Assembly (NCBI GenBank): GCA_025617745.1
Contig: CM046861.1
Coordinates: forward strand, 12,858,516 to 12,922,515
Direction of reading: 5' to 3'
DNA length: 64,000 bases
Source of the DNA: Heliocidaris erythrogramma
Lineage: Eukaryota; Echinodermata; Echinoidea; Camarodonta; Echinometridae
Shown piece after piece: positions 2,604 through 60,452 of the stretch (the first letter of the stretch is position 1; each line of letters begins with the position of its first letter). A model generated the notes under the pieces. It was not told the DNA's origin and searched no databases. It saw nothing but the letters and a program-made list of their open reading frames with translations. The position numbers were made by a program, and so were the translations under genes.

Positions 2604-2891
2604 GGCCAGCTTCAGATATAGTGATAGCTCCTCTTAGCAATGCTTCAGGAAAGAGATCACTTTACTACGCGTATAGATCGGCCGATGAGACTCCTCTTAA
2701 CACCACGTATTCGGAGATACCGGGTACACTTGATGAGGATGACCAGGGAGGTGGAAGATGGGATGATGTAGAATTTGATCCTGTCAACTGGTGGATCTAT
2801 TGGTCGCAGTCATCAACCCTCTCGGGGAGCAGCTCCATTAGAAGATCTGATCTCTTGGGAAACACAGAAACCATACTGGAATCACTAGCTA
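2604..2891 (+). CDS. Gene 1 exon 2: YWTD-like propeller start
   Basis: A 288-nt exon bordered by tcatttcag and gtgagt, entering and leaving in phase 1, so it is symmetric. It encodes 96 residues with an LDL-receptor class B style blade: WWIYWSQ, then SSIRRSDLLGN and TETIL, matching the YWTD...IxRxxLdG pattern. An N-glycosylation sequon (NTT) and an acidic stretch (DEDDQ) precede it. The exon is identical by eye to exon 2 of gene 2. The upstream first exon is not in view. YWTD propellers are extracellular ligand-binding domains; the ligand here is unknown. Confidence 0.75.
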
Positions 2892-3951: not shown

Positions 3952-4734
3952 AGATTTTCTTTCCAGTTCATGACGTATCATGTTTTTTGTCTCGCCTGTC
4001 AAAAAAAAAAAAAAAAAAAAAAAAAAACGAACTCTATTTTACACGATTGGCGTAAAATCGGGAGATTTACAATGCGTGGCGCGAGAGCGGGAGGAAGATC
4101 GTGGTGGCGGGAGTCTCCCACCACGACGCTGGTGGGACGGCGGGAGAATGAGCGTGCATGGTGGCGTGAGACTCCCGCCAAAAGCGGGAGGGTTGACAGC
4201 CCTGATCATACTAGTTGGGCTGAAGAATCATTTTCCGCAGGAACATCACTACTTCGAAGATTTAGTATTGCTCAGTATTCCTAAAAATAAAACAGTCAGG
4301 GTGCTCGACATTGAAAAGAAAGGGGAAATGGGTTCTGTTTTCCTTTAGCCTATAATTTTCTAAATAACGTTTTCTATTTGATGAAGGAATTATCAAAGAG
4401 CCATAAGTTTGATTTTACTAATAACGAACCCTATTATATTCCAGTCCAATACCCTACAAATTCCAAAAAGCCAATAAGCCAACAAAAAAAGGAGGGGCTA
4501 GTCAGATTATTTTTCTCGATGGGGAAATCTCTGTCGGGAAGAAAAAACAGAAAGAAAAAGAAAAAGGCCAAAAGGGGGAGGGGTCCAAGACCTAAAAAAA
4601 AGGAACACAAGAACATTATGACAAGTCACCCGAAAGGGGGTCCGGACCCCCGTTAACCCCCCAACCCCCCCCCCCCCTTTGGATCCGCCCCTGAATTGAT
4701 AGTTGCTTTTGTTGTTGTATTCCTTTCTCAATAG
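3952..4734. other. Intron 2 of gene 1, GC-flanked MITE debris
   Basis: No exon is seen. The stretch holds an A-run at 4,001-4,026, inverted-repeat-rich sequence with 'gcgggag' motifs, and a poly-C tract before a ttggatccgcccctg end at about 4,680-4,694. That end is typical of the GGATCC MITEs that recur in the window. Confidence 0.5.
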
Positions 4735-4936
4735 AACTGATCTTCGCACTGGATTTGACTGACCAGTGTATTTTCTACACTCAGTACGAATCAGATGACG
4801 GGTTTGGGATCAGGAGCTTCAGTCTGAGTGCTCCTAATTCCTGCCATGAACGGCCAAGCTATTTCGATAAGAAGCCTTGGTTTGCATTACATATGGACAA
4901 CCGCGGAAGGCAAGTAATGTGTAAGCTATACGGCGT
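4735..4936 (+). CDS. Gene 1 exon 3: propeller blades (3' end uncertain)
   Basis: The acceptor is ttctcaatag. The exon supplies the two bases needed after the phase-1 end of exon 2, so the reading is LIFALDLTDQCIFYTQ, then FGIRSFSLSAPNS, then KKPWFALHMDNRGRQ. These are two degenerate YWTD-type strands (ALDLTDQCIFYT and ALHMDNRGRQVMC). Three ends are possible: 4,913 (caa/gtaatg, phase 0), 4,920 (t/gtaagc, phase 1, best donor), or 4,936 (weak donor gtctct). Only the last gives the phase that exon 4 needs. Gene 3 has the same choices. Gene 2 lacks the exon. Confidence 0.65.
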
Positions 4937-5713
4937 GTCTCTAAAAAAATGCAACAAAATTTTCATTGGCAATATCTTAAAAAGCGATGTATTATCCTCA
5001 ATGAAATGCCCCCCCCCCCCCTATTCAGGCACACACAAAAAAAAGCCAGAGCGAAAAATCAGGGGAAAGCGGGGTTAGTGAGAGAAAAAGGCCTAAAAAG
5101 GCGCTACAAGCCGTTATCTTTCTCGCGAAATTCGCGCGGGAAGGGGAAAATAACTCTCCTCTCCCTTCACCCACCTCTATTACATACAGTGAAATGTTGC
5201 GTCCAAATAATGGAAAAGCAGTCGGGGCATCGAACTATAACTTTCCGCCTATAAAAAATGTACGAGCCGTTATATTTCTCTCAAATTTGCTAAAATGTCA
5301 GAGTTAATGTCCCGCTTCGCGCTGGAAGGAGGAAACTCCCCCCTCCCTGCACCCACCCCTGTTACATACAGTGCAGTATTGCGTCCAAATAACTGAAAAG
5401 CAGCCAGGGCGTCGAACTAACTTTCCGCCTAAAAAAAAGTGTTACGAGCCGTTATCTTTCTCTCAAATTTGCTGTAAAACATAAGAGCTTTCGCGCTTTG
5501 CTCGTGAGGGGGTTTAAACCACTCGACTACGATAGCTCTACATTATGGACTAATTCAAACAGCAAAAACAAGAATGACTGTCTACTATAATTATCGATTA
5601 ATGTTGAAAAGAGATAGTAATCATAATAGTAACAAACAATTGATTATTTAGAGAAAAAAAGGGGGGGGGGTTAAATCATATAGACAGCCACATGTGAGGG
5701 GAGGGGGTCCACG

Positions 5714-5979: not shown

Positions 5980-6101
5980 GCTTTTTTTTGGATTGGCACG
6001 TGATCAAATAACCGCGGTGTCTTTCAATCATGGTCCTATTAGGAATATGATGACACGCGGGGACCTTGTGAAAGTAACGAGTGTGGCACCAGATGACCAA
6101 G
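5980..6101 (+). CDS. Gene 1 exon 4: variable propeller loop
   Basis: A 122-nt exon between ttttcatgcag and gtagcg. Its open frame reads LFFGLARDQITAVSFNHG, then PIRNMMTRGD, then LVKVTSVAPDDQ. It enters in phase 2 and leaves in phase 1. The other two frames contain stops. ARDQITAVSF and LVKVTSVA look like propeller strands around a loop. That loop differs sharply from gene 2 and gene 3, which read GGIIAK(S/N)TYRA, without any length change. Confidence 0.7.
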
Positions 6102-7503
6102 GTAGCGGCCTAAATATTCAACCAAAAAAGAATTCCCCCGACACTTTTTAGTATGAATCGAGAAATATTTGATCAAGTTTTTTTCATTCTCAAAACAAAG
6201 TATGCAGAATTTTCTAACCAACATTTTGATTGGTTATTTGTAACAAACGATTATGTTGTCATAATGAAATTGTGGTTTTAATTGCAGTCGGTACTAGAAA
6301 AATTGTTGCACTTTGTGTTTCACAATGCCATGAAGGGTGCATGTGTTTATACTCTTTTCAATTCTTCCTTCATGTACATACAAATTACGTGCCTGTATAA
6401 TTTCATGAACAAAATATGAATTGGAAGGAGAATACCAGGTAAATCCTGTATTGCATTATGAAACGCAAAATGCAACCTTTTTTCAACCGACTGCAATAAA
6501 TACCACAATTTCATTACGAAAACAAAATGTTCATACATAATGTGGATAAGAAATGTCTGCATTTTAAAATCGAATGAACAAAATTTATCAAATATTTCTC
6601 GAGTTATTAATGTTTGTCAAGGGGAATTACTTTTTTGTTGAGTTTATGTGTTCTTAGTGTTTTTTTTATTAATTTATGATTATTTCCATGACTTCCTTTC
6701 ACTTAGTTTTAAGGCGGGATTAAGGACCGCGGTATAGATGAAAAAAGTACGGGCTTAAGCGTGTTTTTTTTTTTTTTAAATGAACACTTATATAAAATCC
6801 TTTCAGTTAGTTTCAAGGGGGTTGGAATGCGAAAAGAAATCTTGGGTTAGTAAAATAAACCGCAAAGTAGTAGACAAACGTATGATTCCGGGTACCAATA
6901 AAATCAGTGGTTGAAAACCAAAGATTCATTGGATATAAACACATTGATTATCAAAATGATTAACGCAGCAATAAGTGAATTTATATTTGTATTTGTCATA
7001 GTAATGAGCAGGATTTGACTGCTCTTCATCTGTTGAAAATTTTCGTTTAAACGTTTGCGTTACCATTGAAATGTCAAAGATGCATGAACACTTCGAACCT
7101 ATGGTAAGAAGATTCCTTTTTCCTTTTACCACACTTCTTAATGCTTTTGTCACTGTTAATAAGGAATTTTGCCTGTTACAGAAATTAACATAAAAGTACC
7201 ATGATTGCTTTTTAAATTGGTTCCTCTTTATATTATGCCATGTGTATAACGAAATGTTCTCTACAAAAGAATTCGGAAATATTATGCATTTTTTAATGAA
7301 ATCAAGGAAAATGAAAATGAGTTCACTTGTTCTTAATGTTCTCTTACATTTTTTAAAAACTACTGCATGCCTATAGTTTAGGGCCTAACTGCGAAAAGAT
7401 CTTGTGCAATATCTGCAAATTTCTCCAAAACCGATTTCACTATCCTGGTGAAAGAATTTGTGACCAAACATAATTTTAGGCGTCAAACAGACATAGACAA
7501 AGT
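6102..7503. other. Intron 4 of gene 1, proximal part
   Basis: No exon recognised. The sequence aligns with unit 3 (59,446-61,165) and partly with unit 2. Unit 2 has a 2.3-kb insertion replacing about 6,805-7,002, and unit 3 has a MITE at the point equivalent to about 7,003. Confidence 0.5.
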
Positions 7504-11137: not shown

Positions 11138-11424
11138 CTCTCAAGTTTTATTTTGTTGTCGGTCCAGACATCCGTTATACAGCATATTTAGCAATTGGTT
11201 TCCAAACTGTGAAGACTTTCGAAGGCACGACCAAGATTGAATCTGTGGCAGTTTATGGACACCACCTGTACGCTGTGCTCACCCGAAACAACGTGACGCG
11301 TGAGCTTCATATGATTGACACCCAGACCAAACGTCCTATCTCTATTACATCTTCACTGAAGGGAACATATAGACAACTAGAGTTGGATCACTGTTCGAGG
11401 TTGTACATGTATGAGATAAACTGA
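11138..11424 (+). CDS. Gene 1 exon 5: C-terminal propeller, stop
   Basis: Acceptor ttttctatgcag. Its first two bases complete the phase-1 codon left by exon 4, so a direct 4-5 splice is in frame. The exon reads LKFYFVVGPDIRYTAYLAIG, then QTVKTFEGTTKIESVAVYG, HHLYAVLTRNNVTRELHMID, and ends LDHCSRLYMYEIN before TGA. HHLYAV and ELHMID are propeller-like strands, and NVT is a glycosylation sequon. A possible AATAAA signal is at 12,113-12,118. Versus gene 2, the first ~35 codons carry many replacements while the rest is almost identical. Confidence 0.75.
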
Positions 11425-13170: not shown

Positions 13171-13254
13171 TGTCTCCGCCGGGAATCGAACCCGGGTCAT
13201 CGAACCCGGATAACTGGCTTAGAACGCCAATGCCTTAACCACAAGACCACGGTC
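13171..13254 (-). repeat. tRNA-Arg(TCT)-like SINE head
   Basis: On the minus strand: A-box region tggtcttgtggttaaggc, anticodon arm ggcgttctaagcc with loop centre TCT (complement at 13,221-13,223), and B box ggttcgattcc. A second ggttcga copy 14 nt upstream duplicates the B box, so this is a derived SINE rather than a functional tRNA. Confidence 0.7.
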
Positions 13255-13483
13255 AATGGTTTCGGCGTATAAATGTTTATAATGATATACAAAGAATTTT
13301 AAAGTTCTGCGACGGAGATTCACAAAATAGAGACACCTGATAGAATAAAATACTCTTTTAAACAGAAATATTGTCCATATATATATATATATGTATAATA
13401 TATCTATTTTATTTTGTTCATTTTTTAAAATATTTTTTTAAGGAAGGAAATAAGGCAAGGAAATAACATAGACAGGTATATAT

Positions 13484-21260: not shown

Positions 21261-22577
21261 AACAAGAGCCCCAGGGGGCACGACGCTCACCTGAGGTGGA
21301 TCAATTCACATCTGGTGCATGTTCTCTCTTGCACCACCAGGAGATATGTTAGAAATTGAAACTAGGAGGATGTACATGAGATGATGTTAGAAATTAACAT
21401 AATTCCCCCCCCCACCCCATGGTCTACAATGTCATGTATTATTTGAATCTCCTACATCTAAGGATGATTCCCACCAAGTGTGGTTGAATCATACAACAAA
21501 TCATGCAAAGAATGTACATTTCCCCTCCTGCATATTAACCTCGCCCTCGCAGGACCCCTATGGGGCCACCCTGAGAATGTCATGAACAACATTCATTCTT
21601 CATCTATAGAGGTATCTCCATACACAATACCAAGTCTGAGCTATGCCTGGTTCTGGAGAAGAAGATGCTTGAAATTTACATAGCTTTTACAATTGGGGGC
21701 CTTCCCCCTGGGCCCCCCTGGGGGCCACATGTACCATTTTAGCAACTTTGGGTCCCCTACCCCTAAGGATGATTCCTACCAAGTTTGGTTGAATTCCGAT
21801 CATGTGTTTTGGAGAAGAAGATCAGAATGTACATTTTGCCTGGCAGCGCCCCCCCCCCCCTCTCCAGTATGTTACCCCCACAGGGCCCCTATAGGGCCAC
21901 TCAGAGAAATTTCATGAACAACATTCATTCTTCATCTATAGAGGTATCTCCATACACAATACCAAGTCTGAGCTATGCCTGGTCTGGAGAAGAAGATGTT
22001 TGAAATTTACATAGCTTTTACAATTGGGGGCCTTCCCCCTGGGCCCCTCTGGGGGCCACATGTACCATTTTAGCAACTTTAGGTCCCCTACCCCTAAGGA
22101 TGATTCCTACCAAGTTTGGTTGAATTCCGATCATGTGTTTTGGAGAAGAAGATCAGAATGTACATTTTGCCTGGCAGCGCCCCCCCCCCCTCCAGTATGT
22201 TACCCCCACAGGGCCCCTATAGGGCCACTCAGAGAAATTTCATGAACAACATTCATTCTTCATCTATAGAGGTATCTCCATACACAATACCAAGTCTGAG
22301 CTATGCCTGGTTCTGGAGAAGAAGATGTTTGAAATTTACATAGCTTTTACAATTGGGGGCCCTCCCCCTGGCCCCCCTTGGCCCCCTGGGGGCCACATGT
22401 ACCATTTTAGCAACTTTGGGTCCCCTACCCCTAAGGATGATTCCTACCAAGTTTGGTTGAATTCCGATCATGGGTTTTGGAGAAGAAGATGAAAATGTAA
22501 AAAGTGAACGGACGACGGACGACGGACAAATTTCCATCGCAATAGCTCACTCGAGCCTTAGGCTCAGGTGAGCTAAA
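21261..22577. mobile_element. CTCACCTGAG-ended element with ~330-bp tandem repeats
   Basis: Starts aacaagagccccagggggca, with gctcacctgag at 21,285. Ends with its complement ctcaggtgagc (22,563-22,573) then aaaaa, preceded by a 'ggacgac' repeat. Three tandem units of about 330 bp lie inside (catgaacaacattcattc at 21,581, 21,913 and 22,241). No protein supported. Confidence 0.65.
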
Positions 22578-25200
22578 AATAGACAAAATCGAGTTGGTGG
22601 GGGAGTTGCTCTCTACATCCACAAATCATTTAACTACACTATCTTGGATGAAATCTCAGTTTCTAATATAATTGTTGAATCCCTTTTTATTCAAATTGTG
22701 ATTCCTGGTTATAAGAATATCATTGCCGGTGTTATTTATAGATCTCCTAGCTCAAATGCTCAAGAATTCTTACAATATTTTTCCAATTTGTTAAGAGACG
22801 TCAATTTTGACAATAAAGACTTCTTCTTGATGGGAGATTTCAATATAGATTTATTGAACCATGAACATAACAATATTTCTCAAGACTTTCTTGAATTAAT
22901 TTTATCTGCTTCTTGCTTGCCACTCGTTTCTAAGCCAACGCGTGTTGCTAATGCATCTGCTACTTTAATTGATAATATTTTTTCGAACGTTATTCCACAT
23001 CCTGATTCTTATATTATTTTATCTGACATAACTGATCATTATCCTATTGCAATGTTTTATCCACTAGGTGAATCTAACAGAAATAGTTCCTCAATATATA
23101 GACGTAAAGTTAATGCCGAAAGCCTAGCACGTCTTGCCATTAATCTTGAAAACTTTGATTGGTCGTGTATATATACTAATGAAGACATTAACAGTTCATA
23201 TGAAACTTTTTCCTTAATATTGACCAATCAATTGGATATTAATATGCCGAAACAAAAAATTAAAACCAACTATAAGAAAACACCTAAGCTCCCATGGATT
23301 TCTAAATCCATACTACGCTCAATTAATCGGAAAAATAATCTCTTTTACAAATATAAAATAAAAGGTACTGAAAAATCAAAGGAAAAGTATACATCCTATA
23401 GAAACACATTGACTCAAATCATTCGCCTTGAAAAAAGAAAATACTTCGTAAATCGTTTGGAAATGTTCAAACACGATATGCAAAATACCTGGAAAATTAT
23501 TAAACAAGCGATGAATTTGACAGATAAAAGATCTGAAATAAACAAAATCATGTATAACCATGAAATTATTGAAGATTCCAAAGATATAGCGAATATCTTT
23601 AATACTTACTTTTCGTCAATCGGCAACAATCTCTCTAAAAATATTCCCCCATCAAACAGAAATTATAGTGATTTTTTAGGCCCTGCTAATCCAAATTCTA
23701 TTTTTCTCTTTCCTACGAATAGGCAAGAAGTCATTAATATTGTATCCAACTTACAGAATAAAAAAAGTTCCGGTTTTGATGGAATTAATAACGTAATGTT
23801 GAAAGCCATTATTCATGCATGGTAAATTTCCCAATTCCATGAAACTAGCAAAAATTATTCCCTTATTCAAAAAAGGTGACAAACTTGAAGTAGGTAATTA
23901 TCGGCCAATCTCGTTACTATCTTCTTTTTCCAAAATTTTGGAAAAGATAGTGTTTACTCGAATGATTTCTTTCCTTAAAAAATATGATATCCTCTCTAAT
24001 TTCCAGTTTGGTTTTAGGGAGAAACATAGTACTGTTCATGCTTTGATGTCTTTTGTTGAGAAAGTTGCCCATTCAATTGACTCGTCTTCTCACACAGTAG
24101 GTATATTCCTGGACTTCTCCAAGGCCTTTGATACGATAAATCATGATATTTTACTTTATAAACTTGCTCATATTGGTGTCGGTGGAAAGGCCTTGGAGTG
24201 GTTCAGGAGCTACCTTTCTAACAGAAAACAATTTGTTTTCTTAAACGAGCAAGCATCAGATTTTAAAGATATTTCTTGTGGCGTCCCTCAAGGAAGCCTG
24301 TTAGGCCCATTATTGTTTATACTTTATATAAATGATTTTCATAAATCATCCGATTCCCTGTCATTCATCTTATTTGCAGATGACACCAATTTATTTTTTT
24401 CTCACAGTGATCAAAATGTTCTTGTCGATGTAATCAATAGAGAGCTGCGTAACATATTAGAATGGATAAGGGCTAATAAATTATCATTGAATCTTCTGAA
24501 GACGAATTATATATTGTTTAGTAACTCCTTAGCATCATTACCTACTGATATTGTTTTTGACAATATCCCTCTTGAGCAAGTCTCTCAAACCAAATTTTTA
24601 GGTGTTTTGGTTGACAGTAAACTTTCCTGGAAAATCCACATCGAAAATATTTGTAAAATTATCTCTCGCAATATCGGTATCATTAACAGACTTAAATCAC
24701 ACCTTCCTCAAGCATCTTTACTTATGCTTTACTCATCTCTTATTTTACCATATTTAAACTATGGTCTTTTGGTTTGGGGAAACAGTCATCAAACACTGCT
24801 GGAAAGAGTTTTACTACTACAAAAGAAAGTCATTCGTATAATTTGTAACGCTCCTATACGTGCCCATACGGATTCTCTTTTCCTTGAACATAACATCCTA
24901 AAAATTAAAGATCTGTACTTATTTCATCTTGGTGAATTTATGTATAAATACAATTGTGGTACTCTACCATGTGCGTTTCACGATATGTTTCTAAAAAATC
25001 GTACAATTCACAAATATCCCACCAGACAGTCGGATGAATTTCATTTACCATTTTTGAGAACATTTTCTGCACAAAAAACATTTATTTTTGAAGGTCCTAA
25101 ACTTTGGAATACTTTGCACCATGATTTGGAAAAATCCTCTTCACTCACAATCTTTAAGAGAAATCTAAAGAAATTTTTATTGGCTCCTTACAAAACCTAA
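22578..25200 (+). pseudogene. LINE endonuclease-reverse transcriptase, broken
   Basis: The endonuclease part has LMGDFNIDLL and SDITDHYPI. The reverse transcriptase has YRPISLLSSFSKILEK, FQFGFREKHST, IFLDFSKAFDTINHD, GVPQGSLLGPLLF and the catalytic FADDTN. A 44-bp deletion relative to unit 2 at 23,814/23,815 shifts the frame between the EN-linker half (ending 23,825) and the RT half (open to 25,200). The N-terminal part of EN is missing by 5' truncation. Confidence 0.85.
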
Positions 25201-26665: not shown

Positions 26666-26900
26666 ATGGGAAAGGGAAGGAGAAAACAAACTTTCTGGAT
26701 GAATTGTTTGGGTTTATTGATGTATTTCATCATTCTGACGACCTCATCATCAAAACCCTGTCTCCAGCCTTCATGTAGGAGGATGGTGATGCGGGATGGG
26801 GTGATGGTGGGGTTAGCTCCGATACGATGGCAGGACCACACCCTTGGAAGCTGTGTAAGTGATGGTTCATCTGCTTGCTACATACGATGTCATGTCACAG
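26666..26900 (+). CDS. Gene 2 exon 1: signal peptide and Cys-rich start
   Basis: ATG at 26,666; a 235-nt exon ending at donor cacag/gtaagc in phase 1. It reads MGKGRRKQTFWMN, a hydrophobic CLGLLMYFIILTTSSS (basic n-region plus h-region, a typical signal peptide likely cut near TSSS), then KPCLQPSC and a stretch ending LGSCVSDGSSACYIRCHVTG, with five cysteines. The spacing vaguely recalls PAN/apple-like or other small disulfide modules, but I do not assign one. The phase joins exon 2 exactly (G then PASDIVIAPLS). It marks a true gene start and a secreted product. Confidence 0.7.
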
Positions 26901-27497: not shown

Positions 27498-27785
27498 GGC
27501 CAGCTTCAGATATAGTGATAGCTCCTCTTAGCAATGCTTCAGGAAAGAGATCACTTTACTACGCGTATAGATCGGCCGATGAGACTCCTCTTAACACCAC
27601 GTATTCGGAGATACCGGGTACACTTGATGAGGATGACCAGGGAGGTGGAAGATGGGATGATGTAGAATTTGATCCTGTCAACTGGTGGATCTATTGGTCG
27701 CAGTCATCAACCCTCTCGGGGAGCAGCTCCATTAGAAGATCTGATCTCTTGGGAAACACAGAAACCATACTGGAATCACTAGCTA
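27498..27785 (+). CDS. Gene 2 exon 2: YWTD-like propeller start
   Basis: A 288-nt symmetric phase-1 exon between tcatttcag and gtgagt, joined in frame to exon 1. By eye the sequence is identical to gene 1 exon 2, with WWIYWSQ and SSIRRSDLLGN. Versus gene 3 it shows about eight differences, six of them silent. Adjacent intron sequence is closer to unit 3 than to unit 1. Confidence 0.78.
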
Positions 27786-29621: not shown

Positions 29622-30519
29622 TTAAAGATGTTCTTTCCAGTTCATGACGTATCATGTTTTTTTTGTCTCGCCTGTCAAACAAAAAAATTAAAAAAAAACT
29701 AACTCTATTTTACACGATTGGCGTAAAATCGGGAGATTTACATGCGGGAGAGCGGGAGGAAGATCGTGATGGCGAGAGTCTCCCACCACGACGCTGGTAG
29801 GAGGGCGGGAGAATGAGCGTGCATGGTGGCGTGAGACTCCCGCCAAAAGCGGGAGGGTTGACAGCCCTGATTATACTAGTTGGGCTGAAGAATCATTTCC
29901 GCAGGAACATCACAATTTCGAAGATTTAGTATGGCTCAGTATTCCTAAAAATAATATAGTCAGGGTGCTCGACATTGAAAAGAAAGAGAAAAAAATGGTT
30001 CAAACTAGATGGGTTCTGTTTTCCTTTAGCCTATAATTTTCTAAATAACGATTTCTATTTGATGAAGGAATTATCAAAGAACCCGAAGGAATTATCAAAG
30101 AACCCTAAGTTTGATTTCTCTAATAACGAACCCTATATATTCCAGTATTAGAAATACAAACCTAATTCCGGCCGAAAAGAGCTGTAGGGCAAAACATTAT
30201 TAATATTCTATGGGAACAGGTGATCTTTTATCATGTAGTTGCAGAGGCGGCTCCAAGACTAAGTGGGAGGATTGGGGGGGGGGGGGGGTCCAATACCCTA
30301 CAAATTCCAAAAAGCCAAAAAAAAAAAAAAAAAAAAAAAGGAGGGGGTAGTCAGATTTTTTTTCTCGATGGGGAAGTCTCTGTTGGGAAGGGAAAAAAAC
30401 AGAAAGAAAAAGAAAAAGGCCATCAGTTAAAAAAGGGGGAGGGGTCCAAGACCTAAAAAAAACAGAACACAAGAACCTATGACAAGCCACCCAAAAGGGG
30501 GGCCGGACCCTCGTTAACC
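29622..30519. other. Intron remains upstream of the exon 3 deletion
   Basis: Aligns with 3,952-4,650 and 55,955-56,847. No exon. Contains a G-run at about 30,278-30,288 and an A-run at about 30,318-30,339. Confidence 0.5.
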
Positions 30520-30530
30520 TCTATTCTCCC
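30512..30530 (+). other. Deletion junction: exon 3 of gene 2 missing
   Basis: The sequence passes from gttaacct directly to ctattctccc. In unit 3 these two points lie about 515 bp apart (about 56,848 and 57,363) and enclose exon 3 with both splice sites; unit 1 also keeps it. Short matching bases (ct) lie at the join. Gene 2 as drawn cannot encode the middle propeller blades and may be a pseudogene. Confidence 0.8.
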
Positions 30531-32981: not shown

Positions 32982-33103
32982 GTGTTTTTTTGGATTGGCA
33001 CGTGATGAAATAACTGCGGTGTCTTTCAATAATGGTGGTATTATCGCCAAGAGCACATACCGGGCCCTTGTGAAAGTAACGAGTGTGGCACCAGATGACC
33101 AAG
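32982..33103 (+). CDS. Gene 2 exon 4: variable propeller loop
   Basis: 122 nt, with the same borders and phases (2 to 1) as gene 1. Reads CFFGLARDEITAVSFNNG, GIIAKSTYRALVKV, TSVAPDDQ. Without exon 3, joining exon 2 (phase 1) to this exon (needs phase 2) would shift the frame, unless an unseen exon corrects it. Otherwise the exon looks intact. Confidence 0.65.
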
Positions 33104-34362
33104 GTAACGGCCTAAATATATTCAACCCCCCCCCCAAAAAAAAATTCCCCCGACACTTTTTAGTATGACTCGAGAAATATTTGATCAAGTTTTTTTTCAT
33201 TCTCAAAACAAAGTATGCAGAATTTTCTAACCAACATTTTGATTGGTTATTAATTTTTGTAACAAACGATTATGTTGTCATGAAATTGTGGTTTTAATAT
33301 TGCAGTCGGTACTAGAAAAATTGTTGCACTTTGTGTTTCACAATGCCATGAAGGGTGCATGTGTTTATACTCTTTTCAATTCTTCATTCATGTACAAACA
33401 GGCGCATATAGCATGTGATTCTAGTTCATGAACCTGCGTTGAAAAATCGTGATTTTTAAGGCATTTTCATGAATTTGAATTACAAATTACGCGCCTGTAT
33501 ATTTTTATGAAGAAATTATGAATTGGAAGGAGAATACCAGGTAAATCCTGCATTGCCTTATGAAACGCAAAATGCAACCTTTTTTCAACCGACTGCAATT
33601 AATAAAAACCACAATTTCATTAAGAAAACAAAATGTTCATACATAATGTGGATAAGAAATTTCTGCATTCTTTTATTTTCGAATGAACAAAATTTATCAA
33701 ATATTTCTCGAGTTATATTAAAGTTTGTCAAGGGGAATTACTTTTTTGTTGAGTGTATGTGTTCTTAATGTTTTTTTTTTAATTCAAAAAAATTTCCATG
33801 ACTTCCTTTCACTTAGTTTTAAGGCGGTAGTAAGGAGCGTGGTATAGATGAAAAAAGTACGGGCCTAAGCGTGTTTTTCTTATTGTGTTTTTTTAAATGA
33901 ACACTTATATAAAATATTTATAAAAATTTGGGGTAGCGAGAATTGGTATACATGGTCAAAACGCGCGGAAGTTCGTGCACAGGGGTCATATATCATGCGA
34001 AGTTTTTGTTTTGAATAATATTTTATTTTTCTTCATAAATCAACATAATAACACAATAAAAATTAATTTGCAATATCGATAATACAATCAACTAGCAAAT
34101 ACATGTGTTAAAATAATTAATTTTAAATAAACCTTGTACATGTCAACATTGACTGAACTCCAATCTTATACCAAAATAAAACACATGCACACTATTCTCT
34201 GGTAAGCACATGTAAATCAACATCTAAAGACCACATCATATATATATAAAAAGAAAAAGATAAAAGGAAGGAAAACAAAAACACCCCCCTCCCTCCCTTA
34301 CCACACAGTAGCCTACTTACCCCTACATCACATGAATACATACATTTAATACATCAGTTATG
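33104..34362. other. Intron 4 of gene 2, proximal part
   Basis: Aligned with units 1 and 3 up to about 33,917. After that a unit-2-specific AT-rich segment replaces about 200 bp found in units 1 and 3. No exon. Confidence 0.45.
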
Positions 34363-41236: not shown

Positions 41237-41523
41237 CTCTCAAATTTTATTTTGTTATCGGTCCAGACATCCGTTATACAACATATATAGCAATTCGTCT
41301 CCACCTTGTGAAGACTTTCCAAGGCATGATTAAGATTGAATCAGTGGCAGTTTATGGACACCACTTGTACGCTGTGCTCACCCGAAACAACGTGACACGT
41401 GAGCTTCATATGATTGACACCCAGACCAAACGTCCTATCTCTATTACATCTTCGCTGAAGGGAACACATAGACAACTAGAGTTGGATCACTGTTCGAGGT
41501 TGTACATGTATGAGATAAACTGA
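41237..41523 (+). CDS. Gene 2 exon 5: C-terminal propeller, stop
   Basis: 287 nt, acceptor ctctatgcag, in frame with exon 4. Reads LKFYFVIGPDIRYTTYIAI, RLHLVKTFQGMIKIES, then VAVYGHHLYAVLTRNN, through LYMYEIN and TGA. The first ~35 codons differ from gene 1 at about ten residues. The last 60 differ at one (Y/H). A possible AATAAA lies at 42,218-42,223. Confidence 0.72.
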
Positions 41524-43079: not shown

Positions 43080-43163
43080 TGTCTCCGCCGGGAATCGAAC
43101 CCGGGTCATCGAACCCGGATAACTGGCTTAGAACGCCAATGCCTTAACCACAAGACCACGGTC
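43080..43163 (-). repeat. tRNA-Arg-like SINE head, unit 2
   Basis: Same as 13,171-13,254, with the duplicated B box. Confidence 0.7.
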
Positions 43164-43374
43164 AATGGTTTCGGCGACACCAGATTCATTTCTCACAATT
43201 GTATTAATTTCCACGAGAGTTGCCAAAGCTTTTGTATATGTTATTACCTCACACTTGTATACACATGTATAAATGTTTATAATGATATACAAAGAATTTT
43301 AAAGTTCTGCGACGGAGATTCACAAAATAGAGACACCTGATAGAATAAAATACTCTTTTAAACAGAAATATTGT

Positions 43375-47720: not shown

Positions 47721-49047
47721 AACAAGAGCCCCAGGGGGCACGACGCTCACCTGAGGTGGATCAATTCACATCTGGTGCATGTTCTCTCTTGCACCACCAG
47801 GAGATATGTTAGAAATTGAAACTAGGAGGATGTACATGAGATGATGTTAGAAATTAACATAATCCCCCCCCCCCCACCCCCATGGTCTACAATGTCATGT
47901 ATTATTTGAATATCCTACATCTAAGGATGATTCCCACCAAGTGTGGTTGAATCATACAACAAATCATGCAAAGAATGTACATTTCCCCTCCTTCATATTA
48001 ACCTCGCCCTCGCAGGACCACTATGGGACCACCCTGAGAATGTCATGAACAACATTCATTCTTCATCTATAGAGGTATCTCCATACACAATACCAAGTCT
48101 GAGCTATGCCTGGTTCTGGAGAAGAAGATGCTTGAAATTTACATAGCTTTTACAATTGGGGGCCTTCCCCCTGGGCCCCCCTGGGGGCCACATGTACCAT
48201 TTTAGCAACTTTGGGTCCCCTACCCCTAAGGATGATTCCTACCAAGTTTGGTTGAATTCCGATCATGTGTTTTGGAGAAGAAGATCAGAATGTACATTTT
48301 GCCTGGCAGCGCCCCCCCCCCCCTCCAGTATGTTACCCCCACAGGGCCCCTATAGGGCCACTCAGAGAAATTTCATGAACAACATTCATTCTTCATCTAT
48401 AGAGGTATCTCCATACACAATACCAAGTCTGAGCTATGCCTGGTCTGGAGAAGAAGATGCTTGAAATTTACATAGCTTTTACAATTGGGGGCCTTCCCCC
48501 TGGGCCCCCCTGGGGGCCACATGTACCATTTTAGCAACTTTAGGTCCCCTACCCCTAAGGATGATTCCTACCAAGTTTGGTTGAATTCCGATCATGTGTT
48601 TTGGAGAAGAAGATCAGAATGTACATTTTGCCTGGCAGCGCCCCCCCCCCCCCCTCCAGTATGTTACCCCCACAGGGCCCCTATAGGGCCACTCAGAGAA
48701 ATTTCATGAACAACATTCATTCTTCATCTATAGAGGTATCTCCATACACAATACCAAGTCTGAGCTATGCCTGGTTCTGGAGAAGAAGATGTTTGAAATT
48801 TACATAGCTTTTACAATTGGGGGCCCTCCCCCTGGCCCCTTTGGCCCCCTGGGGGCCACATGTACCATTTTAGCAAATTTGGGTCCCCTACCCCTAAGGA
48901 TGATTCCTACCAAGTTTGGTTGAATTCCGATCATGGGTTTTGGAGAAGAAGATGAAAATGTAAAAAGTGAACGGACGACGGACGACGGACGACGGACAAA
49001 TTTCCATCGCAATAGCTCACTCGAGCCTTAGGCTCAGGTGAGCTAAA
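47721..49047. mobile_element. CTCACCTGAG-ended element with ~330-bp repeats, unit 2
   Basis: Same ends and three internal units as 21,261-22,577. The 'ggacgac' repeat near 48,975 is one unit longer. Confidence 0.65.
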
Positions 49048-49049
49048 AA

Positions 49050-51715
49050 TAGACAAAATCGAGTTGGTGGGGGAGTTGCTCTCTACATCCTCAAATCATT
49101 TAACTACACTATCTTGGATGAAATCTCAGTTTCTAATACAATTGTTGAATCCCTTTTTATTCAAATTGTGATTCCTGGTAATAAGAATATCATTGCCGGA
49201 CTTATTTATAGATCTCCTAACTCAAATGATCAAGAATTCTTACAATATTTTTCCAATTTGTTAAGAGACGTCAATTTTGACAATAAAGACTTCTTCTTGA
49301 TGGGAGATTTCAATATAGATTTATTGAACCATGAACATAACAATATTTCTCAAGACTTTCTTGAATTAATTTTATCTGCTTCTTGCTTGCCACTCGTTTC
49401 TAAGCCAACGCGTGTTGCTAATGCATCTGCTACGTTAATTGATAATATTTTTTCGAACGTTATTCCACATCCTGATTCTTATATTATTTTATCTGACATA
49501 ACTGATCATTATCCTATTGCAATGTTTTATCGACTAGGTGAATCTAACAGAAATAGTTCTTCAATATATAGACGTAAAGTTAATGCCGAAAGCCTAGCAC
49601 GTCTTGCCATTAATCTTGAAAACTTTGATTGGTCGTGTATATATACTAATGAAGACATTAACAGTTCATATGAAACTTTTTCCTTAATATTGACCAATCA
49701 ATTGGATATTAATATGCCGAAACAAAAAATCAAAACCAACTATAAGAAAACACCTAAGCTCTCATGGATTTCTAAATCCATACTACGCTCAATTAATCGG
49801 AAGAATAATCTCTTTTACAAATATAAAATAAAAGGTACTGAAAAATCGAAGGAAAAGTATACATCCTATAGAAACACATTGACTCAAATCATTCGCCTTG
49901 AAAAAAGAAAATACTTCGTAAATTGTTTGGAAATGTTCAAACACGATATGCAAAATACCTGGAAAATTATTAAACAAGCGATGAATTTGACAGATAAAAG
50001 ATCTGAAATAAACAAAATCATGTATAACCATGAAATTATTGAAGATTCCAAAGATATAGCGAATATCTTTAATACTTACTTTTCGTCAATCGGCAACAAT
50101 CTCTCTAAAAATATTCCCCCATCAAACAGAAATTATAGTGATTTTTTAGGCCCTGCTAATCCAAATTCTATTTTTCTCTTTCCTACGAATAGGCAAGAAG
50201 TCATTAATATTGTATCCAACTTACAGAATAAAAAAAGTTCCGGTTTTGATGGAATTAATAACGTAATGTTGAAAGCCATTATTCCTGTTATTGTAGATCC
50301 TTTGGTGAATATTTTAAATTTATCATTGATGCATGGTAAATTTCCCAATTCCATGAAACTAGCAAAAATTATTCCCTTATTCAAAAAATGTGACAAACTT
50401 GAAGTAGGTAATTATCGGCCAATCTCGTTACTATCTTCTTTTTCCAAAATTTGGGAAAAGATAGTGTTTACTCGAATGATTTCTTTCCTTAAAAAATATG
50501 ATATCCTCTCTAATTTCCAGTTTGGTTTTAGGGAGAAACATAGTACTGTTCATGCTTTGATGTCTTTTGTTGAGAAAGTTGCCCATGCAATTGACTCGTC
50601 TTCTCACACAGTAGGTATATTCCTGGACTTCTCCAAGGCCTTTGATACGATAAATCATGATATTTTACTTTATAAACTTGCTCATATTGGTGTCGGTGGA
50701 AAGGCCTTGGAGTGGTTCAGGAGCTACCTTTCTAACAGAAAACAATTTGTTTTCTTAAACGAGCAAGCATCAGATTTTAAAGATATTTCTTGTGGCGTCC
50801 CTCAAGGAAGCCTGTTAGGCCCATTATTGTTTATACTTTATATAAATGATTTTCATAAATCATCCGATTCCCTGTCATTCATCTTATTTGCAGATGACAC
50901 CAATTTATTTTTTTCTCACAGTGATCCAAATGTTCTTGTCGATGTAATCAATAGAGAGCTGCGTAACATATTAGAATGGATAAGGGCTAATAAATTATCA
51001 TTGAATCTTCTGAAGACGAATTATATATTGTTTAGTAATTCCTTAGCATCATTACATACTGATATTGTTTTGGACAATATCCCTCTTGAGCAAGTCTCTC
51101 AAACCAAATTTTTAGGTGTTTTGGTTGACAGTAAACTTTCCTGGAAAATCCACATCGAAAATATTTGTAAAATTATCTCTCGCAATATCGGTATCATTAA
51201 CAGACTTAAATCACACCTTCCTCAAGCATCTTTACTTATGCTTTACTCATCTCTTATTTTACCATATTTAAACTATGGTCTTTTGGTTTGGGGAAACAGT
51301 CATCAAACACTGCTGGAAAGAGTTTTACTACTACAAAAGAAAGTCATTCGTATAATTTGTAACGCTCCTATACGTGCCCATACGGATTCTCTTTTCCTTG
51401 AACATAACATCCTAAAAATTAAAGATCTGTACTTATTTCATCTTGGTGAATTTATGTATAAATACAATTGTGGTACTCTACCATGTGCGTTTCACGATAT
51501 GTTTCTAAAAAATCGTACAATTCACAAATATCCCACCAGACAGTCGGATGAATTTCATTTACCATTTTTGAGAACATTTTCTGCACAAAAAACATTTATT
51601 TTTGAAGGTCCTAAACTTTGGAATACTTTGCACCATGATTTGGAAAAATCCCCTTTCACTCACAATCTTTAAGAGAAAACTAAAGAAATTTTTATTGGCT
51701 CCTTACAAAACCTAA
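49050..51715 (+). pseudogene. LINE endonuclease-reverse transcriptase, nearly full frame
   Basis: Open without interruption from the EN part (LMGDFNIDLL, SDITDHYPI) through RT (IFLDFSKAFDTINHD, GVPQGSLLGPLLF, FADDTN) and the C-terminal region (YGLLVWGNSH). A one-base insertion near 51,650 (aaatcccctttc against aaatcctcttc in unit 1) causes a stop at 51,672, about 14 codons early. The N-terminal endonuclease part is absent, so it is non-autonomous. Confidence 0.85.
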
Positions 51716-53196: not shown

Positions 53197-53431
53197 ATGG
53201 GAAAGGGAATGAGAAAACAAACTTTCTGGATGAATTGTTTGGGTTTATTGATGTATTTCATTATTCTGACGACCTCATCATCAAAACCATGTCTCCAGCC
53301 TTCCTGTAGGAGGATGGTGATGCGGGGTGGGGTGATGGTGGGGTTAGCTCCAATACGATGGCAGGACCACACCCTTGGAAGCTGTGTGAGTGATGATTCA
53401 TCTGTTTGCTACATACGATGTCATGTCACAG
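53197..53431 (+). CDS. Gene 3 exon 1: signal peptide and Cys-rich start
   Basis: 235 nt, same start and phase-1 donor (gtaagc) as gene 2. Reads MGKGMRKQTFWMN, CLGLLMYFIILTTSSS, KPCLQPSC, then SCVSDDSSVCYIRCHVTG. The five cysteines are kept. Four replacements (R/M, D/G, G/D, A/V) and about five silent changes against gene 2. Confidence 0.72.
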
Positions 53432-54201: not shown

Positions 54202-54489
54202 GGCCAGCTTCGGATATAGTGATAGCTTCTCTTAGCAATGCTTCAGGAAAGAGATCACTTTACTACGCGTATAGATCGGCCGATGAGACTCCTCTTAACA
54301 CTACCTATTCGGAGATACCGGGTACACTGGATGAGGATGACCAGGGAGGTGGTAGATGGGATGACGTAGAATTTGATCCTGTCAACTGGTGGATCTATTG
54401 GTCGCAGTCATCAACCCTCTCGGGGAGCAGCTCCATTAGAAGATCTGATCTCTTGGGAAACACAGAAACCATACTGGAATCACCAGCTA
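54202..54489 (+). CDS. Gene 3 exon 2: YWTD-like propeller start
   Basis: 288 nt, phase 1 to 1, in frame with exon 1. It has WWIYWSQ and SSIRRSDLLGN. Differs from genes 1 and 2 at about eight sites, two of them replacements (P/S and L/P). Confidence 0.78.
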
Positions 54490-56929: not shown

Positions 56930-57131
56930 AACTGATCTTCGCACTGGATTTGGCTGACCAGTGTATTTTCTACACTCAGTACGAATCAGATGACGGGTTT
57001 GGGATCAGGAGCTTCAGTCTGGGTGCTCCCAATTCCTGCCATAAACTGCCAAGCCGTTTAGATAAGAAGCCTTGGTTTGCATTACATATGGACAACCGCG
57101 CAAGGCAAGTAATGTGTAAGCTATACGGCGT
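56930..57131 (+). CDS. Gene 3 exon 3: propeller blades (3' end uncertain)
   Basis: Acceptor ttctcaatag, in frame with exon 2. Reads LIFALDLADQCIFYTQ, FGIRSFSLGAPNSCHK, LPSRLDKKPWFALHMD, NRARQ. Possible ends are 57,108 (phase 0), 57,115 (phase 1, gtaagc) and 57,131 (phase 2, weak donor gtctct). Against gene 1 nearly all substitutions are replacements (T/A, S/G, E/K, R/L, Y/R, F/L, G/A) with about one silent change. Confidence 0.65.
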
Positions 57132-59323: not shown

Positions 59324-59445
59324 GTGTTTTTTTGGATTGGCACGTGATGAAATAACTGCGGTGTCTTTCAATAATGGTGGTATTATCGCCAAGAACACAT
59401 ACCGGGCCCTTGTGAAAGTAACGAGTGTGGCACCAGATGACCAAG
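59324..59445 (+). CDS. Gene 3 exon 4: variable propeller loop
   Basis: 122 nt, phases 2 to 1. Reads CFFGLARDEITAVSFNNG, GIIAKNTYRALVKV, TSVAPDDQ. One residue (N/S) differs from gene 2. The acceptor region reads ttttcaggcag, so a second upstream AG exists only here; the conserved frame uses the second. The last exon is expected beyond 64,000. Confidence 0.68.
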
Positions 59446-60452
59446 GTAACGGCCTAAATATATTCACCCCCCCAAAAAAAAGAATTCCCCGGACACTTTT
59501 TAGTATGACTCGAGAAATATTTGATCAGTTTTTTTTCATTCTCAAAACAAAGTATACAGAATTTTCTAACCAACATTTTGATTGGTTATTTGTAACAAAC
59601 GATTATGTTGTCATAATGAAATTGTGGTTTTAATATTGCAGTCGGTACTAGAAAAATTGTTGCACTTTGTGTTTCACAATGCCATGAAGGGTGCATGTGT
59701 TTATACTCTTTTCAATTCTTCATTCATGTACATACAGGCGCATATAGCATGTGATTCTAGTTCATGAACCTGCGTTGAAAAATCGTGATTTTTAAGGCAT
59801 TTTCATGAATTTGAATGACAAATTACGCGCCTGTATATTTTTATGAACAAATTATGAATTGGAAGGAGAATACCAGGTAAATCCTGCATTGCATTATGAA
59901 ACGCAAAATGCAACCTTTTTTCAACCGACTGCAATTAATAAAAACCACAATTTCATTAAGAAAACAAAATGTTCATACATAATGTGGATAAGAAATTTCT
60001 GCATTCTTTTATTTTCGAATGAACAAAATTTATCAAATATTTCTCGAGTTATATTAAAGTTTGTCAAGGGGAATTACTTTTTTGTTGAGTGTATGTGTTC
60101 TTAATGTTTTTTTTTTTTAATTTATGAATATTTCCATGACTTCCTTTCACTTAGTTTTAAGGCGGGATTAAGGAGCGTGGTATAGATGAAAAAAGTACCG
60201 GCCTAAGCGTGTTTTTCTTATTGTATTTTTTTTAATGAACACTTATATCAGATCCTTTCAGTTAGTTTCCAGGGGGTTGGAAAAGAAATCTTGGGTTAGT
60301 AAAATAAACCGCAAAGTAGTAGACAAACGTATGATTCCGGGTACCAATAATATCAGTGCTTGAAAACCAAAGATTCATTGGACATAAAGACATTGATTAT
60401 CAAAATGATTAACGCAGCAATAAGTGAATTTATATTTGTACTTGTCATACAC
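59446..60452. other. Intron 4 of gene 3, proximal part
   Basis: Aligned with 6,102-7,000 of unit 1. No exon seen. Confidence 0.45.

What the first reader, a model, noticed from the sequence alone, without database searches (positions are those of the whole stretch)
6018..6065. Hypervariable 46-nt patch in exon 4
Between genes 1 and 2, about 15 of 46 nucleotides differ in this patch (HGPIRNMMTRGD against NGGIIAKSTYRA). There is no indel and nearly every change alters an amino acid. The rest of the exon and nearby intron differ by only a few percent, and the old LINE in the spacer by about one percent. This is the pattern of a binding loop under diversifying selection, or of conversion from an unseen paralogue.
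Basis: seen in the sequence. Interest (0 to 1): 0.8.

Follow-up and report, generated by a model that had tools for sequence, protein, structure and literature searches.

The report
Fast-changing patch in urchin gene cluster
A cluster of near-identical genes, apparently from a sea urchin, encodes proteins that differ mainly in three neighbouring short patches, the pattern expected if natural selection keeps changing one face of a protein that binds something.

Summary
Gene 1 differs from genes 2 and 3 at 15 of 46 bases (6029-6074), all within 35 bases, 14 nonsynonymous, no indel; non-coding background is 4-5%. The exon is real: exon 4 of 5 in a 1107-base frame, open in genes 1 and 4. The assembly (1.06 Gb, bindin-positive, so an echinoderm) gave five copies in about 150 kb and no other exon-4 match. 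They carry three patch classes. Weaker replacement clusters lie in exons 3 and 5; 25 of 32 variable residues fall in three consecutive inter-repeat segments (boundaries by eye). A site model favours positive selection (p=0.007; bootstrap 1 of 67) but rests on exon 4. Around exon 4, gene 4 groups with gene 1; elsewhere with gene 3 or gene 2: the copies are mosaics. Best reading: diversifying selection on one surface of an orphan repeat protein, with exchange between copies shuffling patches. An unseen donor was sought and not found. One-step import is not excluded. Genes 2 and 3 each lack an exon. Ligand, expression and polymorphism are untested.

The parts
6029..6063 (+). Gene 1 hypervariable patch in exon 4 (HGPIRNMMTRGD)
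   Evidence: 15 changes against genes 2 and 3, 14 nonsynonymous
5980..6101 (+). Gene 1 exon 4
   Evidence: AG acceptor, GT donor, phases fit, open in all five copies found
2604..2891 (+). Gene 1 exon 2 (no coding difference from gene 2 in the 95 codons compared)
4735..4909 (+). Gene 1 exon 3, GC-AG intron after it; change cluster 4827-4865 against gene 3
   Evidence: frame requires the GC donor; cluster P=0.027
11138..11424 (+). Gene 1 exon 5 with stop codon; replacement cluster 11182-11232 against gene 2
   Evidence: cluster P=0.0034
26666..26900 (+). Gene 2 exon 1 (start codon, signal-peptide-like stretch by eye); gene 1 counterpart begins upstream of the window at C9:12855967
   Evidence: five homologous copies, GT donor in phase 1
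27498..27785 (+). Gene 2 exon 2
32982..33103 (+). Gene 2 exon 4; patch 33031-33065 (NGGIIAKSTYRA)
41237..41523 (+). Gene 2 exon 5
30519..30520 (+). Deletion point in gene 2 that removes exon 3 (gene 1 4658 to 5154)
   Evidence: split alignment; no exon 3 match in gene 2
53197..53431 (+). Gene 3 exon 1
54202..54489 (+). Gene 3 exon 2
56930..57104 (+). Gene 3 exon 3 (GC donor kept)
59324..59445 (+). Gene 3 exon 4; patch 59373-59407 (NGGIIAKNTYRA). Exon 5 is deleted beyond the window end
   Evidence: deletion
6118..6641 (.). Palindromic repeat in the intron just after exon 4, present in all five copies
   Evidence: inverted-repeat self match; alignment of five copies

Best explanation
Exon 4 belongs to a five-exon gene for a propeller-like repeat protein of 368 residues, probably secreted, with no Pfam relative. 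In a tandem array of five copies, selection has favoured repeated amino-acid change in three corresponding patches (exons 3, 4, 5): the segment joining one repeat to the next in three consecutive repeats, probably one contiguous surface that meets a changing partner (microbe, parasite or gamete-side ligand). Exchange between copies homogenises much of the rest and moves exon-4 blocks, so distinct patch versions sit on similar backbones. Shown: patch, open frame, copies, mosaic structure, no other exon-4 match found in the assembly. Moderately supported: positive selection. Inferred: fold, surface, secretion, partner, function.
For: Patch 14 nonsynonymous to 1 synonymous. Exons 2-5, patches against the rest: 30 N and 3 S on 99.7 and 29.3 sites, against 9 N and 12 S on 564.5 and 164.5 sites (Fisher p=3e-4; patches chosen after seeing the clusters). 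Patch dS (0.11) is near dS outside (0.077) while dN is 0.38 against 0.016. Gene 4/5 has a third patch, 7 changes from gene 1 in exon 4, counted as 6.5 N and 0.5 S, with codons between gene 1 and gene 2 (CCT-CGT-GGT; AAT-ACT-GCC, read). In exon 5 all 5 replacements of gene 4 against gene 1 are among gene 2's 11. 25 of 32 variable residues lie in three successive inter-repeat segments (80 residues) and 2 in the three others (87 residues) (Fisher p=2e-7; boundaries by eye, after the fact). M1a/M2a LRT 9.9, p=0.007, bootstrap 1 of 67; with branches capped at 0.05 per base LRT 21.5. Around exon 4 (-262 to +130) 8 of 8 informative non-coding sites join gene 4 with gene 1, elsewhere 1 of 48 (p=6e-9; block ends chosen after seeing the sites). 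Genes 1 and 4 have open 1107-base frames.
Against: Without exon 4 the site model shows nothing (LRT 0.17). Overall M0 omega is 0.93; whole exon 5 and exon 2 have dN below dS. In the exon 4 patch alone N to S gives P=0.11, for gene 1/gene 4 exon 4 P=0.15 to 0.48; the pooled patches reach p=0.039. Gene 1/gene 4 patch divergence does not exceed their global flank value (P=0.32). Five adjacent bases changed (6042-6046), which hints at a multi-base event, not modelled. Genes 2 and 3, the only carriers of the second class, each lack an exon. No expression, polymorphism, ligand or usable structure (exon models pLDDT 48 and 37). Gene 5 may be the other haplotype of gene 4.
Confidence: 0.6

Rival explanations
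1. The patch came in one step: a very short conversion tract from a diverged or lost paralogue, or one multi-base mutation; selection for change played no special part.
For: Five adjacent changed bases and 15 changes in 35 bases at a background of 4-5%. Exchange between copies is demonstrable. Without exon 4 there is no site-model signal. N to S in the patch alone is compatible with no selection (P=0.11).
Against: No further exon-4 match returned from the 1.06-Gb assembly by DNA or by protein up to E=10 (the first look is heuristic, and a mismatch-tolerant patch search did not complete). No patch-like stretch in 272 kb around the array beyond shuffle level. Synonymous and flanking divergence not raised in step. 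Gene 4 carries intermediate codons, and exon 5 shows a nested series.
Confidence: 0.22
2. Relaxed constraint: genes 2 and 3 are decaying pseudogenes and their exon 4 drifted.
For: Gene 2 lacks exon 3 and the frame breaks if exon 2 joins exon 4; gene 3 lacks exon 5.
Against: Exon 4 is open with intact splice sites in both, differs by 1 base between them, and its last 38 bases are identical in all five copies. Neutral drift would not give 15 of 35 changed with 0 of 38 beside it. Genes 1 and 4, with open frames, also differ in the same exon 3-5 regions.
Confidence: 0.07
3. A local template switch or repair error at the palindromic repeat beside exon 4 made the cluster.
For: A palindrome of about 0.5 kb starts 17 bases after exon 4.
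Against: No template: the longest exact match of either patch elsewhere in the window is 9-10 bases, within the range of 100 shuffles (8-14). Clusters in exons 3 and 5 are not explained.
Confidence: 0.03
4. Assembly or haplotype artefact.
For: Genes 4 and 5 are mirror images across a 500-N gap, 123 of 14625 compared bases apart, so one may be a misplaced haplotype.
Against: Genes 1-4 lie on sequence without N (the only N run in the 272 kb fetched is between genes 4 and 5); the second class is in two copies, the third in genes 4 and 5.
Confidence: 0.04

Closest known systems
SpTransformer (Sp185/333) family of the purple sea urchin (PMC8634487: abstract, section list and one section read)
   Same: Small clustered echinoderm gene family; changes in the variable exon mostly nonsynonymous; history of duplication, deletion and point mutation.
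   Different: There exon 1 is conserved and exon 2 highly variable with element patterns (section headings); here five exons, no indel in the patch, a propeller-like repeat protein. No sequence comparison with SpTrf was made.
Tachylectin-2-like gene of the coral Oculina (PMC2880987: abstract read)
   Same: Putative invertebrate recognition protein with high amino-acid diversity and positive selection; tachylectin-2 is a beta-propeller lectin (recalled).
   Different: Allelic diversity in a cnidarian gene; here copies in an array. Function here unknown; no sequence comparison made.
RPP8 resistance gene family of Arabidopsis (PMC6771003: abstract read)
   Same: Tandem duplicates, exchange between copies and selection together keep variation.
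   Different: Leucine-rich repeat receptors of plants with population data; here one assembly.
YWTD / LDL-receptor class B propeller (recalled)
   Same: About 44-residue repeats of hydrophobic strand, short loop, aromatic strand.
   Different: No Pfam match at E up to 10 and no significant solved relative; motifs here read IYWS, IFYT, LFFG, KFYF, LYAV.

Membership tests
LDL-receptor class B / YWTD propeller | Match to the family profile | tested here: not met
   0 Pfam families at E up to 10 for the exon 2-5 product of gene 1 and the full products of genes 1 and 4
LDL-receptor class B / YWTD propeller | Six repeats of about 42 residues forming a propeller (recalled) | tested here: inconclusive
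   Strand-propensity autocorrelation peaks at lag 45 (then 44), p=0.05 over lags 25-64 in 500 shuffles; seven units marked by eye. Exon 5 model shows strands at low confidence (pLDDT 48)
LDL-receptor class B / YWTD propeller | Sequence relation to a solved propeller | tested here: not met
   No propeller among the PDB matches at E up to 10; best is a tubulin chaperone at E=1 or 0.041
Tandem recognition gene array under diversifying selection | Excess of amino-acid change in part of the protein | tested here: met
   Fisher p=3e-4, M2a p=0.007; depends on exon 4, and patches were chosen after the fact
Tandem recognition gene array under diversifying selection | Exchange between copies | tested here: met
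   Local change of copy relationships around exon 4, p=6e-9
Tandem recognition gene array under diversifying selection | High polymorphism in the population | not testable with these tools
   One assembly only
Tandem recognition gene array under diversifying selection | Binding function of the variable surface | not testable with these tools
   No ligand or expression data
SpTransformer (Sp185/333) | Two-exon gene (recalled, in line) with element pattern in exon 2 | tested here: not met
   Five exons, no indel pattern in the exons compared

The most novel reading that the evidence does not exclude
The array is a small templated diversification system: structurally incomplete copies (genes 2 and 3, each missing one exon but with a clean exon 4) serve as stores of patch variants, and exon-sized conversion moves patches into complete copies of a new family of recognition propellers.
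Probability: 0.1. Interest if true: 0.85.

Novelty: new member of a known kind. Interest (0 to 1): 0.5.

Why it matters
If selection is confirmed, this is a new, compact case of an invertebrate recognition-type gene array: an orphan repeat protein whose variation is concentrated in the same element of three neighbouring repeats, on copies that otherwise stay alike through exchange. It would offer a tractable system (five copies, short patches) to ask what such a protein is chasing and whether incomplete copies act as sequence donors.

Tried and rejected
Template switch or local inverted donor: none found (in the first line of that output the gene 1 patch matched its own unmasked place and is ignored). 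A second spike of sites joining genes 1 and 4 against 2 and 3, 390-510 bases after exon 4, proved to be misalignment around deletions in the palindromic repeat; with gap-adjacent columns removed one such site remains there. Global-alignment flank divergences are inflated by indels; local gap-filtered values are preferred, and both are reported. Exon folds gave low confidence. Pfam and PDB searches gave no relative. ARAGORN found no tRNA although Rfam reports two. Literature: seven searches showed no paper on this family in their listings; that does not show that none exists. Dropped before counts: gene 5 in the codon models (same as gene 4 in exons 2-5), exon 1 in the codon models and patch counts, the stop codon, columns near gaps. 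The bootstrap stopped on time at 67 of 200 planned replicates.

Script slips: one search used a wrong exon 2 end and failed on exon 5, put right; one search stopped with an error after its main output; one search read locus L002 in the wrong orientation, put right.

Full report
What was claimed.

The observation. Self-comparison of the window shows three tandem copies. The 46-base window 6029-6074 holds 15 changes against both gene 2 and gene 3; they lie at 6029-6063 and give HGPIRNMMTRGD against NGGIIAKSTYRA (gene 2) or NGGIIAKNTYRA (gene 3), 14 nonsynonymous and 1 synonymous, without indel. The rest of exon 4 has 4 changes in 87 bases, none in the last 38. Non-coding divergence, gap-filtered, is 294 of 5710 sites (gene 1/2) and 178 of 4325 (gene 1/3). 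The near upstream flank is less tidy than stated: a 27-base indel about 45 bases before the exon with mismatches around it. The LINE in the finding lies before genes 2 and 3 (24 of 2626 sites different) and before gene 4, and was not matched in the 59 kb fetched before the window, so it is no yardstick for gene 1/gene 2.

The gene. Splice sites and phases fit a five-exon gene: exon 1 with a start codon and a stretch that looks like a signal peptide (by eye), exon 2 (2604-2891 in gene 1), exon 3 (4735-4909, GC donor required by the frame), exon 4 (5980-6101), exon 5 (11138-11424). The spliced frame is 1107 bases with the stop, 368 residues, open in gene 1 and gene 4. It has no Pfam match at E up to 10 and no significant solved relative (best E=0.041, a tubulin chaperone). 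By eye it has seven units of a hydrophobic strand followed by an aromatic strand, about 44 residues apart; strand propensity peaks at a period of 44-45 (p=0.05). A beta-propeller is likely but not shown; the exon 5 model (pLDDT 48) is only a hint and the exon 2 model (37) is none.

The array. The window lies at C9:12858516-12922515 of a 1.06-Gb assembly in 26 contigs. A bindin family search of that assembly gives 240 bits, with 0 of 14 control genomes positive, so it is an echinoderm, most likely a sea urchin (the taxon range of bindin is recalled). Exon 4 as DNA and as protein finds five places, all in this array; the tool's first look is heuristic. I fetched 272 kb around it. Gene 4 starts 11.5 kb beyond the window; gene 5 is a mirror copy of gene 4 beyond a 500-N gap, 123 of 14625 compared bases different, without a difference in the codons of exons 2-5, perhaps the other haplotype. 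From the exon 1 of gene 1 to that of gene 5 is about 150 kb. Gene 2 lacks exon 3; gene 3 lacks exon 5 through a deletion of about 0.9 kb in gene 1 coordinates just beyond the window. Joining exon 2 to exon 4 in gene 2 breaks the frame, so genes 2 and 3 may not make the full protein.

Three patch classes. Gene 4/5 reads HGRIRTMMTRDA. It differs from gene 1 at 7 bases of exon 4, counted as 6.5 nonsynonymous and 0.5 synonymous, and from genes 2 and 3 at 20. Some of its codons lie between those of gene 1 and gene 2 (CCT, CGT, GGT; AAT, ACT, GCC). In exon 5, gene 4 has five replacements against gene 1, all shared with gene 2, which has eleven. This looks like stepwise change rather than one import. 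Against that: gene 1 and gene 4 differ in the patch by 5 of 35 bases, no more than their global flank value (P=0.32), and their N to S ratio in exon 4 is not significant (P=0.15 to 0.48).

Other patches. Changes are clustered in exon 5 (gene 1/2, 10 of 18 within 46 bases, P=0.0034) and exon 3 (gene 1/3, 7 of 9, P=0.027), but not in exon 2 (gene 1/3, 3 of 8, P=0.94). In the three patches (chosen after seeing the clusters) there are 30 nonsynonymous and 3 synonymous changes; in the rest of exons 2-5, 9 and 12 (Fisher p=3e-4; patches alone p=0.039; the rest looks conserved, p=6e-4). As whole exons, only 3 and 4 have dN above dS. Of 32 variable residues in exons 2-5, 5 lie in the strand 1-2 units (116 of 289 residues, boundaries by eye), 25 in the three consecutive linking segments 192-222, 239-262 and 282-306, and 2 in the three other linking segments (p=2e-7).

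Selection test. A codon site model (own code, copies 1-4, one tree per exon, exons 2-5) gives M0 omega 0.93 and M1a/M2a LRT 9.9, p=0.007, omega 3.65 for 29% of sites; in a parametric bootstrap 1 of 67 null replicates reached it. Capping branches at 0.05 per base gives LRT 21.5. Leaving out exon 4 gives LRT 0.17, so the test depends on the very exon in question; leaving out exon 5, or using only exons 4 and 5, keeps it (10.1 and 13.6). Multi-base mutation is not modelled.

Exchange between copies. At non-coding sites aligned in genes 1-4 and away from gaps, 8 of 8 informative sites from -262 to +130 around exon 4 (141 columns) join gene 4 with gene 1; in the rest (4462 columns) 1 of 48 does, 27 joining 1 with 2 (so 4 with 3) and 20 joining 1 with 3 (so 4 with 2) (p=6e-9, block ends set after seeing the sites). 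So the block around exon 4 has its own history, with ends between -3022 and -262 and, apart from one lone site at +457, between +126 and +753. Exchange within the array moves exon 4 between backbones.

Mechanism. Most likely: a repeat protein whose linking segments in three neighbouring repeats form one exposed surface; a changing partner selects for replacements there; conversion and unequal exchange keep the rest alike and reassort patches. The partner is not known; microbe recognition and gamete interaction are guesses from analogy with SpTransformer genes (PMC8634487, abstract, section list and one section) and coral tachylectin-2 (PMC2880987, abstract). The main rival, one-step import or multi-base mutation, is weakened by the lack of a found donor, the low synonymous and flanking divergence and the intermediates in gene 4, but not excluded.

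Verdict. The patch is real and lies in a real exon; selection is the better explanation; the unseen donor was looked for and not found; exchange among visible copies is real. This is a new member of a known kind of system, with an orphan protein family and an untested partner.

Noticed in passing
window 4910 and 57105 (also genes 4, 5): Intron 3 has a GC-AG donor (AG|GCAAGT) in all four copies that keep exon 3.
   Followed up: yes
window 30519; C9:12923978: Gene 2 has lost exon 3 and gene 3 has lost exon 5; the two carriers of the second patch class are each one exon short.
   Followed up: yes
C9:12970283-12970782: 500-N gap with genes 4 and 5 as mirror images on either side, 123 of 14625 compared bases apart: inverted duplicate or misplaced haplotype.
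   Followed up: partly
window 49042-51669 and 22572-25197: LINE-like reverse transcriptase: an 876-codon open frame before gene 3, split into two frames before gene 2; a third copy before gene 4.
   Followed up: partly
window 6118-6641, 33136-33747, 59476-60083: Palindromic repeat of about 0.5-0.6 kb in intron 4 with copy-specific deletions near its centre.
   Followed up: partly
window 13171-13256 and 43080-43165, minus strand: tRNA matches in Rfam (32.9 bits) in both spacers; ARAGORN reports none, so possibly tRNA-like repeats.
   Followed up: partly
window 21517-22475 and 47980-48939: Three tandem units of about 330 bases in each of two spacers.
   Followed up: no
window exon 1 copies 26666-26900, 53197-53431 and outside: Exon 1 also varies mostly by replacements between gene 1 and genes 2, 4 and 5 (7.5-9.5 N to 1.5 S), less so against gene 3 (7.5 to 4.5).
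   Followed up: partly
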